Shown one piece after another: positions 1 to 4,091 of a DNA stretch of 64,000 nt (positions within the stretch are counted from its first letter, which is position 1; each line of letters opens with the position of its first letter). The stretch spans positions 32,068 through 96,067 of the forward strand of contig JAFLTI010000001.1 in assembly GCA_022510485.1 (NCBI GenBank). Reading direction: 5' to 3'. Source of the stretch: Lentimicrobiaceae bacterium. Its GTDB lineage: Bacteria; Bacteroidota; Bacteroidia; Bacteroidales; P3. The notes under the pieces were generated by a model. That model was not told the origin of the DNA, made no database searches, and worked only from the letters and a program-made list of their open reading frames with translations. Made by a program: the position numbers and the translations under genes.

Positions 1-250
1 TGGCTTATGCCGAAACGCAAAACTTTCAACGAAGCGAAGCGTAGTTAAAAGTACATAACCCAAGTAAGCTCCCTCGAAACCTGCTCCGCGCGCCTTGCAT
101 CTTACCGTTCTAACTGCTTTTTTCTCATTTCAGTCTTGAAGAAAACCAAGCTCCGCTTGGATTATGGCAAGACAGCGCCCCAAGCCACGTTTACGTGGCT
201 TATGCCGAAACGCAAAACTTTCAACGAAGCGAAGCGTAGTTAAAAGTACA
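1..250. repeat. 55-bp direct repeat, two copies 195 bp apart
   Basis: Positions 1-55 and 196-250 are identical (beginning TGGCTTATGCCGAAACGC and ending TTAAAAGTACA). Just before and into the second copy there is a hairpin: the arm AAGCCACGT at 182-190 pairs with ACGTGGCTT at 193-201. The equivalent left arm of the first copy would lie outside the window. No coding frame is apparent. Function unknown. Confidence 0.85.
62..106 (+). repeat. Dispersed repeat unit: two 15-bp blocks 15 bp apart
   Basis: AAGTAAGCTCCCTCG at 62-76 and GCCTTGCATCTTACC at 92-106 match 10768-10782 and 10798-10812 with one difference each. The intervening 15 bp are largely different but have the same length. The same layout recurs at 10910-10954. 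This is a repeat family dispersed across at least 10 kb. Confidence 0.7.
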
Positions 251-281
251 GAAGCCAAACGTAGAATAATAAATATATTGG

Positions 282-337
282 CACTGCGTAAAAATACGAG
301 ATACACTGCGTAAAAATACGAGATGCACTGCGTAAAA
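282..337. repeat. 22-bp tandem repeat, about 2.5 copies
   Basis: The unit CACTGCGTAAAAATACGAGA plus two bases starts at 282 and 304, with a partial third copy at 326-337. The first two copies differ only in the last base. It lies in AT-rich non-coding DNA, with no spacers and no neighbouring cas genes. Confidence 0.8.
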
Positions 338-500
338 TGTAATTATATGTACAAACGGTCTGAATATCTAATAATTAAACTCACCCGACAAACCCCTTTT
401 CCTAATCATAAATTCCGTTAAGAATCTGTTGCTTACAGGGGAGTATATAGATACGACAGGCTTGGCGGAAAAGCAGGAGGTAAATCCATTCTAAAAAAAA

Positions 501-2394: not shown

Positions 2395-2504
2395 AAAATT
2401 TATATTATTATAATTTTCCAGTGCTTGAACATCCTTAAAAGACAGTATTTGCATATTGTCTTTTAGTTACCTTAACTGTCGCAAATTATAATAATATAAA
2501 TTTT
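2395..2504. repeat. Nested inverted repeat (22-bp arms, inner 13-bp hairpin)
   Basis: Arms at 2395-2416 and 2483-2504 are perfect reverse complements over 22 bp. Inside, 2436-2448 pairs with 2453-2465 around a TTGC loop with one mismatch. The 110-bp element could extrude as a cruciform or fold as RNA. It encodes nothing. A foldback/MITE-like element or a transcription barrier are both possible. Confidence 0.75.
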
Positions 2505-2611: not shown

Positions 2612-2632
2612 CTCCGTGCAAGCGGGGCAGCC

Positions 2633-2744
2633 AGTCGAAAAAAGTGTCACAATGTGACAGTAATTTCGACTGAAAATTGGAACATATTGAAAAATAACTA
2701 TCTTTGTAGTCGAAAAAAGTGTCACACTGTGACAGTAATTTCGA
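2633..2744. repeat. Pair of 37-bp repeats, each with a 15-bp palindrome
   Basis: Positions 2633-2669 and 2708-2744 are the same 37-bp sequence with one base difference, starting 75 bp apart. Each contains TGTCACA-N-TGTGACA (2645-2659 and 2720-2734). The first copy also has outer arms AGTCGAAA/TTTCGACT. The one variable base is the centre of the palindrome. This is the expected look of a dimeric repressor site. The second copy covers the predicted transcription start of the ATPase gene. Confidence 0.8.
2676..2706 (+). promoter_or_regulatory. Bacteroidetes-type promoter of the ATPase gene
   Basis: ATTG at 2676-2679 is followed after exactly 19 bp by TATCTTTG at 2699-2706, matching the TTTG-N19-TAnnTTTG consensus. 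The box sits between the two palindromic repeats, so binding to both could loop or block the promoter. It places the transcription start near 2710, about 40 nt before the chosen ATG at 2753. Confidence 0.7.
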
Positions 2745-2752
2745 ATGAAGCA

Positions 2753-4003
2753 ATGATAGAGCGAAAAAAATATCTTGACGAACTCATCTCCCTGCAACAA
2801 AACGGCATGATTAAGGTAATAACGGGAATGCGGCGATGTGGAAAATCTTACCTGCTGTTTACATTATTTGCAGACTATCTTGAAAAAAGAGGTATTGCGC
2901 CTGACCATATCATTAAAATTGATTTAGAAAACTTCAAAAACAGGGAACTCCGTAATCCCGATAATCTTTATGCTCACATAGAGGCTCGGATTACCGATAC
3001 AGACACCTATTATATTCTTTTAGACGAGGTACAGTTGCTCGAATATTTTGAAGAAGTATTGAACGGGCTGCTGCATATTCCGAATGTGGATGTTTATGTA
3101 ACGGGAAGCAATGCAAAATTTTTATCGAAAGACATCATAACCGAATTTCGGGGAAGGGGCTTTGAAATCAAGATGCACCCTCTGCGCTTTGCCGAATATA
3201 TGTCTGTATACCAAGGTTCCGTACAAGCCGGTTTGAATGAATACCTGCTGTACGGTGGTCTGCCCCAAATCATCTCCTACCCCACCGAAGAACTCAAAAT
3301 CAGGTTCTTGCAAAACTTATTCACCGAAACCTATCTTCGGGATATCATAGACCGCTACAAGATTCAAAAAGATGATGATTTGGAGGAAATCATCAACATA
3401 CTGGCATCGGGGGTGGGTTCGCTGACCAATCCCAATAAATTGGCTAACACATTCAAAAGCAATAAAAAATCGGAAATTTCCTACGATACGGTTAAAGGTT
3501 ACGTAGATTACCTATGCGACTCTTTTCTGATAGAAAAAGCCACCCGGTATGATATCAAGGGAAAAACTTATATTAATACACCTTTCAAATACTATTTTAT
3601 GGATTTGGGCTTACGCAATGCCCGAATCAATTTCCGACAGACAGACCGAGGGCATCTGATGGAAAACTTAATCTATAATGAACTGCGTATCAGGGGATAT
3701 AATGTAGATGTGGGCGTAATGCCGGTAGTGGTAAGAAATGAAAACGGACAGCAACAGCGTTCTCAGCTTGAGGTTGATTTTGTTTGCAATGCCGGCAGCA
3801 GACGCTATTACATTCAATCGGCATACAGAATGGATACGGAGGAAAAAATGGCGCAGGAAAAAGCCTCCCTGCTAAAAGTGGATGACTCGTTTAAAAAAAT
3901 TATCATTCTTGGAGAGGAATCTCCTGTCATCAGAGACGAAAACGGCATCACCTCTATCAGCATCTATGATTTTCTACTGAAAGAGAACGCCTTGGAATTG
4001 TAA
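2753..4003 (+). CDS. AAA ATPase, DUF4143 family
   Basis: The start at ATG 2753 (MIERKKYLDELISL) gives 416 aa. The open frame runs further upstream, but that stretch is the repeat and promoter DNA. The Walker A motif is GMRRCGKSYLL near residues 25-35 and Walker B is YYILLDEVQLLEY near 90. The C-terminal DUF4143 domain has LEVDFVCNAG. The family (COG1373) has P-loop proteins of unclear role, sometimes found with toxin-antitoxin or defence genes. The DUF4143 part resembles a nuclease-like fold in some predictions; that is family knowledge, not something shown here. The gene stands alone with its own promoter, flanked by palindromic operators suggesting tight control. Confidence 0.85.
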   Translation: MIERKKYLDELISLQQNGMIKVITGMRRCGKSYLLFTLFADYLEKRGIAPDHIIKIDLENFKNRELRNPDNLYAHIEARITDTDTYYILLDEVQLLEYFEEVLNGLLHIPNVDVYVTGSNAKFLSKDIITEFRGRGFEIKMHPLRFAEYMSVYQGSVQAGLNEYLLYGGLPQIISYPTEELKIRFLQNLFTETYLRDIIDRYKIQKDDDLEEIINILASGVGSLTNPNKLANTFKSNKKSEISYDTVKGYVDYLCDSFLIEKATRYDIKGKTYINTPFKYYFMDLGLRNARINFRQTDRGHLMENLIYNELRIRGYNVDVGVMPVVVRNENGQQQRSQLEVDFVCNAGSRRYYIQSAYRMDTEEKMAQEKASLLKVDDSFKKIIILGEESPVIRDENGITSISIYDFLLKENALEL

Positions 4004-4026: not shown

Positions 4027-4057
4027 CTTGCATTTTAAAAAAAACGCACTACCTTTG
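4027..4057 (+). promoter_or_regulatory. Promoter of the efflux operon
   Basis: CTTG at 4027-4030, a 19-bp spacer and TACCTTTG at 4050-4057 match the Bacteroidetes promoter consensus. The predicted start near 4062 falls just before the inverted repeat at 4064-4091. The promoter would drive the tetR-tolC-adaptor-pump genes. Confidence 0.7.
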
Positions 4058-4063
4058 CGCCCC

Positions 4064-4091
4064 GGAAACGATTTATAAAAAAAACGTTTCC
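4064..4091. promoter_or_regulatory. Inverted repeat, candidate TetR operator
   Basis: GGAAACG (4064-4070) and CGTTTCC (4085-4091) are perfect 7-bp arms separated by 14 bp. They lie at the predicted transcription start and end 7 bp before the TetR start codon. An autoregulatory operator is the natural reading. A leader hairpin is the alternative. Confidence 0.5.

What the first reader, a model, noticed from the sequence alone, without database searches (positions are those of the whole stretch)
2633..2744. Two identical palindromic repeats bracket the promoter of a DUF4143 ATPase
TGTCACA-N-TGTGACA occurs twice within 37-bp near-identical repeats. One copy lies upstream of the -33 element and one over the transcription start. 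The only base difference is the palindrome centre. This is a textbook double operator, yet no regulator gene is adjacent. DUF4143 ATPases are poorly understood.
Basis: seen in the sequence. Interest (0 to 1): 0.55.

Follow-up and report, generated by a model that had tools for sequence, protein, structure and literature searches.

The report
DUF4143 ATPases read private operators
The two palindromes are a matched pair of binding sites around the gene's own promoter; more than a hundred related genes from several bacterial phyla carry the same kind of site, often in pairs but with different letters, and those letters track a few amino acids of the ATPase itself, so this widespread but unexplained candidate anti-phage protein probably switches itself off by reading a private DNA address.

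Summary
The two palindromes, 75 bp apart, bracket the promoter and occur nowhere else in the draft genome: neither a dispersed repeat nor a multi-gene regulon. Many AAA_14-DUF4143 homologs in several phyla carry the same design with other letters: a ~37-bp site of two nested inverted repeats around A-tracts, starting at the end of the -10/-7 box, often with a second copy usually 73-78 bp upstream. A site was found in 49 of 81 held-out homologs, against 9 of 203 other long ORFs. The letters co-vary with the ATPase: in those 49 loci recognition-helix residue 245 predicts one outer-arm base 43 times (baseline 20, nearest relative 24), best of 416 columns; residues 326 and 334, on a C-terminal beta-hairpin, best predict two core bases. 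No neighbour gene recurs. Best explanation: the ATPase is its own operator-binding autorepressor. PADLOC calls it PDC-S01, a phage-defence candidate. Binding is inferred from coevolution, not shown biochemically; the trigger and any immune function are unknown.

The parts
2632..2672 (.). Upstream operator: outer arms CAGTCGAAA / TTTCGACTG around core TGTCACA-A-TGTGACA (2645-2659)
   Evidence: same layout in homologs
2677..2706 (+). Promoter between the operators: TTG (2677-2679), 19 bp, TATCTTTG (2699-2706)
   Evidence: read; consensus recalled; in homologs the -10/-7 box ends -1 to +4 bp from the downstream site in 92 of 127 scored loci
2708..2745 (.). Downstream operator over the presumed start site and 5' UTR; core TGTCACA-C-TGTGACA (2720-2734)
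2753..4003 (+). AAA_14-DUF4143 ATPase (416 aa): ATPase/STAND-like module, winged helix about 207-282, C-terminal domain with hairpin 317-347; PADLOC PDC-S01
3476..3523 (+). Recognition-helix segment, residues 242-257; Y244 and D245 co-vary with outer-arm bases 3 and 4
3701..3793 (+). Beta-hairpin, residues 317-347; V326, Q334 and R336 co-vary with core bases 3, 2 and 5
4064..4091 (.). A different palindrome GGAAACG-N14-CGTTTCC before the downstream tetR gene, which argues that TetR uses another operator
   Evidence: read; TetR_N

Best explanation
The DUF4143 ATPase binds the two sites as a symmetric (at least dimeric) DNA-binding protein and represses its own promoter. On each half-site the winged-helix recognition helix (residues 244-245) reads the outer arm, and a beta-hairpin of the C-terminal domain (326, 334, 336) reads the core about one helical turn away. 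The downstream site covers the transcription start; the upstream site abuts the -35/-33 element; a protein bridge between them would lock the promoter. Shown here: paired sites, nested symmetry, position, locus-private sequence, replicated residue-base coevolution, no recurrent neighbour. Inferred: direct binding, dimerisation, repression rather than activation, bridging. Speculative: ATP state or a phage signal releases the protein, giving derepression and/or activity of the C-terminal domain.
For: Nested pairing is kept while letters change: 0 of 2000 column shuffles reach the observed value at core pairs 14-17 and outer pairs 2-6 in 53 non-redundant discovery loci, and at core 14-16 and outer 2-5 in 49 held-out loci. 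Sites in 49 of 81 held-out ATPase genes against 9 of 203 other long ORFs. In the 49, the own upstream region holds a copy at >=24/37 identity in 27, against 10 of 245 upstream regions of other loci. Held-out prediction from 82 discovery loci: residue 245 to outer base 4, 43 of 49 (baseline 20, nearest neighbour 24; next-best column 0.53); 326 to core base 3, 37 (24; 30); 334 to core base 2, 32 (11; 30); each the best of 416 columns for its base. For the 15 held-out loci under 60% identical to any discovery locus, 245 is right 14 times, nearest neighbour 3. Many pooled pairings are chemically sensible: 245 N->A 30/37, D/E->G 27/29, K/H->C 25/32; 326 R->C 23/34; 334 Q->A 11/12, K->G 12/16; 336 R->G 92/101. 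The window, left out of the map, fits (D245/G, V326/C, Q334/A). The model places these residues on the recognition helix (244-256) and the hairpin (317-328/334-347). Exact cores lie only at the own gene in G000, G015 and G036, the three genomes checked.
Against: No biochemical data. 32 of 81 held-out loci have no site above the threshold, some with no visible palindrome; a second copy is found in only 27 of 53 and 30 of 49 loci. Core pair 17/20 did not replicate in held-out loci (394 of 2000 shuffles). Of nine core columns set in advance, 332, 335, 237 and 239 did not replicate (ranks 262, 158, 95, 106), and 331 and 336 only weakly (50, 25). Residue 334 barely beats the nearest neighbour (32 against 30). 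Some pairings are not textbook, such as 326 N->G 32/43. Sister-pair cross-controls, which should be null, also reach p 0.03, 0.03 and 0.003, so shared ancestry is not fully removed. Residue 238 ranked first in the held-out pair correlation but predicts no base well. Several ATPase-domain columns score high in the mutual-information table. Helical phasing of spacings is not specific to 10.5 bp.
Confidence: 0.8

Rival explanations
1. A separate regulator encoded elsewhere binds the sites (conventional double operator in trans).
For: Double operators are usually bound by separate small regulators (recalled); a TetR gene is directly downstream here.
Against: No neighbour family recurs in more than 2 of the 47 loci with full flanks. 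Operator letters track residues of the ATPase beyond nearest-neighbour relatedness, clearly for 245 and 326. The TetR gene has its own, different palindrome. The site is unique in the genome.
Confidence: 0.08
2. The sites are a dispersed or mobile palindromic repeat (REP, MITE, terminal repeat) that happened to land at the promoter.
For: Two near-identical copies; relatives of the gene also occur on plasmids (249 of 72,556 records) and viral contigs (62 loci).
Against: Only two copies in the genome; the same layout with different letters stands at homologous promoters in several phyla; placed within a few bp of the -10/-7 box.
Confidence: 0.02
3. The ATPase binds the sites but as an activator, or uses them as a loading or recombination site rather than for repression.
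For: IniR, whose ATPase domain is predicted to resemble SSO1545, is needed to induce the iniBAC genes (PMC5760070, passages); Orc1/Cdc6 proteins, similar in fold, bind origin DNA.
Against: The downstream site starts within -1 to +4 bp of the end of the -10/-7 box in 92 of 127 scored loci, a position that should block polymerase.
Confidence: 0.12
4. An RNA structure in the 5' leader is the functional element.
For: The downstream copy is transcribed and palindromic.
Against: The upstream copy lies before the promoter and is not transcribed from it; the A-tracts interrupt pairing (four unpaired column pairs).
Confidence: 0.02

Closest known systems
PDC-S01, PADLOC phage-defence candidate
   Same: The window protein matches a PDC-S01 model over residues 1-411, E 1.9e-122; described as an ATPase domain fused to a member of the PD-(D/E)XK superfamily (PMC12988326, passages).
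   Different: The passages seen in two survey papers concern abundance and phylogeny; the words promoter, operator, palindrome and inverted repeat do not occur in the main text of PMC12988326. [quoted passage not shown]
BrxR-type WYL repressors of defence islands
   Same: BrxR binds inverted repeats downstream of a predicted -10 box and represses transcription; 193 of 347 homologues have upstream inverted repeats (PMC9122601, passages).
   Different: BrxR is a dedicated WYL-domain regulator; no WYL domain was found here, and here the candidate effector seems to be its own regulator, with hypervariable letters and two read-out domains.
RptR, repressor of a restriction-modification island
   Same: Represses a defence promoter through repeated sites with a palindromic core (PMC12255303, abstract and outline).
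   Different: RptR is a small dedicated regulator, and it and its 6-bp site are highly conserved; here the site is private to each gene.
STAND / SSO1545-like ATPases, Orc1/Cdc6
   Same: Residues 1-296 align with 2fna (Z 16.7, rmsd 3.7 A, 262 residues), plant NLR RPP1 (14.9, 4.3 A, 249), CED-4 (13.9, 4.3 A, 248), EfAvs5 (12.3, 4.3 A, 247).
   Different: I know of no STAND protein with a hypervariable self-operator code (recalled, not searched for as such); the C-terminal domain gave only weak matches.
Self-regulating R-M proteins (C proteins, M.EcoRII/M.SsoII; recalled)
   Same: A defence-linked protein represses its own promoter at a palindrome.
   Different: Those are small HTH regulators or methyltransferases; this is an ATPase.

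Membership tests
AAA_14-DUF4143 (Pfam PF13173 + PF13635) | Both domains above the gathering score | tested here: met
   106.8 bits (cut-off 27) and 76.4 bits (cut-off 28.1)
PDC-S01 (PADLOC) | Match to the PDC-S01 profile | tested here: met
   E 1.9e-122, residues 1-411
PDC-S01 (PADLOC) | Anti-phage activity | not testable with these tools
   Experimental validation pending for most PDCs according to PMC12988326 (passage)
STAND / Orc-like ATPase | AAA+ core followed by a winged helix | tested here: met
   AlphaFold2 pLDDT 90.1, pTM 0.90; 2fna Z 16.7, rmsd 3.7 A, 262 residues
PD-(D/E)XK nuclease | Restriction-endonuclease fold | tested here: inconclusive
   Domain model pLDDT 80.3; no PDB match with E <= 0.001; weak R.BspD6I-subunit and splicing-endonuclease matches
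PD-(D/E)XK nuclease | Canonical (D/E)xK catalytic motif | tested here: not met
   E340-x-D342 is kept, but the next strand reads Q355-S/V-A357 in 23 of 23 close homologs, with no lysine there (a distant one has S at 357); activity cannot be excluded
Dispersed palindromic repeat | Many genomic copies | tested here: not met
   Two copies only
Double operator | Two near-identical palindromes flanking one promoter | tested here: met
   (promoter by consensus, not mapped)
WYL regulator (BrxR) | WYL domain | tested here: not met
   Pfam scan at E <= 0.001 finds AAA_14 and DUF4143, and AAA_22 under its cut-off
Autorepressor | Protein binds and represses its own promoter | not testable with these tools
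   Coevolution only

The most novel reading that the evidence does not exclude
PDC-S01 ATPases are a large family of self-addressed immune switches. Each gene carries a private pair of operators read by a two-domain amino-acid code (winged helix for the outer arm, C-terminal hairpin for the core). Code and operator diversify together, giving many specificity groups; the operator-bound ATPase is the sensor, and infection or an ATP-state change releases it, both derepressing the gene and freeing the effector.
Probability: 0.3. Interest if true: 0.9.

Novelty: new variant of a known kind. Interest (0 to 1): 0.78.

Why it matters
A 2026 survey calls PDC-S01 the fourth most common defence across prokaryotes, with 9,986 detected in Archaea and 29,494 in Bacteria, and says that validation is pending for most such candidates (PMC12988326, passages); DUF4143 is named in one paper of the searched library. 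This work gives a concrete handle: for many members the likely DNA target can be read next to the gene itself, and single residues are predicted to control single bases. That makes binding, regulation and, through release, a possible immune trigger directly testable. It is also a natural data set for a protein-DNA recognition code that seems to use two domains.

Tried and rejected
Generic palindrome scoring on the last 70 bp was weak (22 of 109 loci at p <= 0.01, 37 at p <= 0.05), probably because the A-tracts interrupt the symmetry; an aligned 37-bp model replaced it. That model was seeded with 24 hand-picked loci and iterated, so one search is discovery. and the control comparison use loci under 90% identical to discovery loci with the model frozen; the box-distance and spacing counts pool both sets. 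The 79% against 42% within- and between-locus core identity is inflated, because the 27 two-copy loci were chosen by identity >= 20/37; the comparison (27 of 49 against 10 of 245) is the fairer one.

Helical phasing: spacings cluster at 73-78 bp (33 of 44 non-redundant two-copy loci) with smaller groups at 62-63, 69-70, 83-87 and 94-95, but periodicity is not specific to 10.5 bp. Not claimed.

Avoidance of cross-talk: 26 of 28 co-resident paralog pairs fall short of 0.7 similarity in core or outer arm, but they are no more different than between-genome pairs (core 0.50 against 0.43, outer 0.37 against 0.38). No evidence for selection against cross-talk.

More distant DUF4143 genes: an inverted repeat at p <= 0.05 in 8 of 18 against 2 of 23 control ORFs. 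Suggestive only; these have other geometries.

Residue 238 and ATPase-domain columns as base readers: not supported.

PDB sequence search with the family profile: 0 matches at E <= 0.01. NCBIfam: none at E <= 0.1. PHROGs: one weak match, E 0.028. The VIA alignment barely covers the C-terminal domain, and the domain-only search is weak.

Literature searches: DUF4143 (1 paper), AAA_14, PDC-S01 (3 papers), phage defence candidate with PADLOC, guilt-by-embedding, BrxR, archaeal ATPase/DUF234/SSO1545, and an autorepression combination. In the listings, abstracts and passages seen, none showed an operator or autoregulation for this family; subscription papers and preprints are not held.

Dropped rows: of 62 viral loci 18 entered the operator analysis (the rest more distant, cut or without upstream DNA); L059 was dropped from the protein alignment (94-aa frame). 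The window was left out and of the training map because its core is 15 bp, not 14. The neighbour test used 47 of the 76 loci L041-L116 (those longer than 5,800 bp).

Full report
What is there. At 2632-2672 and 2708-2745 lie two near-identical sites, 75 bp apart, around a promoter-like sequence (TTG 2677-2679, 19 bp, TATCTTTG 2699-2706) of a 416-residue AAA_14-DUF4143 gene (start 2753). Each site holds the reported core TGTCACA-N-TGTGACA and, beyond an A-rich spacer, an outer inverted repeat (TCGAAA...TTTCGA). With 0 or 1 mismatch the motif occurs nowhere else in the 1.96-Mb draft assembly, and the 16-mer GTGTCACANTGTGACA occurs in none of 60 relatives.

Relatives have the same design with other letters. 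The nearest homologs show two copies 75 bp apart: L006 and L007 (72 and 71% identical) have TGTCAAAAATGACA twice, and in their genomes that exact 14-mer occurs only at those two places. I then read upstream regions of 98 loci from public genome and viral contigs and 11 from the window genome and relatives (109 in all). An aligned model shows a 37-bp site: outer arm (columns 1-7), A-tract (8-11), core half (12-17), core half (20-25), A-tract (26-29), outer arm (30-36). Of 74 loci under 75% identical to each other, 53 pass the threshold (window not counted); in these, core and outer columns pair far more than column shuffles allow, while A-tract columns do not. Cores are diverse: TGCGTAAATACGCA, TGCGGATATCCGCA, TGTGTCAAGACACA, GGGCACATGTGCCC and others. 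Records labelled Bacteroidota, Firmicutes, Planctomycetota (L054), Verrucomicrobiota (L076) and Actinomycetota (L105) are among those with a site; most are metagenome-assembled, so labels may err.

Replication. From further genomes I took 81 loci under 90% identical to discovery proteins and to each other. With the model frozen, 49 of 81 have a site, against 9 of 203 other long ORFs of the discovery loci. The nested pairing replicates except at pair 17/20, and 30 of 49 have a second copy. Over all 133 loci with sites, 127 have a recognisable -10/-7 box, and in 92 of these it ends between 1 bp inside and 4 bp before the site; both TATAAT- and TAnnTTTG-type boxes occur (70 and 57). Of 44 non-redundant two-copy loci, 33 have spacings of 73-78 bp, just enough for a core promoter between the sites.

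Who reads it. No gene family recurs beside the ATPase in more than 2 of 47 loci. I asked whether operator letters follow protein columns beyond overall relatedness. In the discovery set, core similarity tracked columns 334, 326, 238, 332 and 336 among others, and outer-arm similarity tracked 245 and 243 among others. In held-out loci 238, 326 and 334 ranked 1, 2 and 10 of 361 for the core, 336 and 331 ranked 25 and 50, while 332, 335, 237 and 239 did not replicate; 243 and 245 ranked 2 and 5 for the outer arm, and the discovery hits 56, 133, 170, 66 and 185 fell to ranks 81-279. At the level of single bases, residue 245 predicts outer base 4, 326 predicts core base 3 and 334 predicts core base 2, each as the best of 416 columns. 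For 245 the accuracy is 43 of 49 and does not fall with distance: 14 of 15 in loci under 60% identical to any training locus, where copying the nearest relative gives 3. Much of the pooled table reads like textbook chemistry (recalled): at 245 Asn with A, Asp/Glu with G (C on the other strand), Lys/His with C (G on the other strand); Gln334 with A; Arg336 with the nearly invariant core G. Some entries do not, such as Asn326 with G. Residue 238 did not predict a base well.

Where these residues sit. The AlphaFold2 model (pLDDT 90.1, pTM 0.90) has an ATPase module, a winged helix (helices 207-219, 227-237, 244-256; wing strands 260-267 and 272-282) and a C-terminal domain whose hairpin (317-328/334-347) carries 326, 334 and 336. 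244 and 245 open the recognition helix. Columns 244, 327 and 334 are the 2nd, 4th and 5th most variable of 416, while T246 is invariant in that set. Outer base 4 and core base 3 are 11 bases apart, so one subunit could contact two successive major grooves on one face (inference).

Mechanism. I commit to autorepression by the ATPase. Shown: private paired sites, symmetry, position, replicated coevolution. Inferred: dimeric binding, repression, bridging between the sites. Not addressed: the inducing signal and the effector activity. The canonical catalytic lysine is missing in this clade (Q355-S/V-A357), so the C-terminal domain may serve mainly in DNA reading or use an altered active site.

Against known kinds. 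The protein is PDC-S01 in PADLOC; surveys report it as very abundant, with validation pending for most such candidates (PMC12988326 and PMC13356809, passages). BrxR (PMC9122601, passages) and RptR (PMC12255303, abstract and outline) also repress defence genes through palindromes, but they are dedicated regulators, and RptR's site is conserved. The combination found here, a candidate defence ATPase that seems to be its own repressor through a hypervariable, two-domain operator code, was not found in the searches named in Tried and rejected. The kind (autorepressor with paired operators) is known; the variant appears new.

Limits. All evidence for binding is coevolutionary. About 40% of held-out homologs (32 of 81) lack a site by this model. 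Ancestry is reduced but not removed as a confounder: cross-controls in sister pairs are not null, and residue 334 hardly beats the nearest neighbour. The model was seeded by hand in the discovery step.

Noticed in passing
window 2395-2504: A perfect 22-nt AT-rich inverted repeat (2395-2416 / 2483-2504) with a nested 13-nt inverted repeat (2436-2448 / 2453-2465, 92%) between the two divergent genes; possible terminator pair or invertible segment.
   Followed up: no
window 4050-4091: The downstream tetR gene (before genes that read like an efflux pump, not scanned) has TACCTTTG (4050-4057) followed by GGAAACG-N14-CGTTTCC, a likely TetR operator.
   Followed up: no
window 1-340: Repeated stretch around ccaagccacgtttacgtggcttatgccg...taaaagtaca at about 1-50 and 177-250, and tandem cactgcgtaaaaatacgaga units near 282-340.
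   Followed up: no
L313 (NZ_CP133466.1, whole record): A 2,630-bp circular record of Prevotella nigrescens DSM 13386 has only two annotated genes, this ATPase and a TaqI-like specificity-domain protein; two palindromic sites are visible upstream of the ATPase. Possibly an excised circle or tiny plasmid.
   Followed up: partly
L181, L187, L013, L023, L025 upstream regions: Two more distant DUF4143 genes (L181, L187) and L013 share a TGCATAAAAAA...TTTTATGCA palindrome before the -7 box; L023 and L025 share ATTATTAAAACTTG...CAAGTTTTAATAAT. Other subfamilies may have their own operator geometry.
   Followed up: partly
plasmid collection: 249 plasmid records encode relatives, 175 of them from Acinetobacter.
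   Followed up: no
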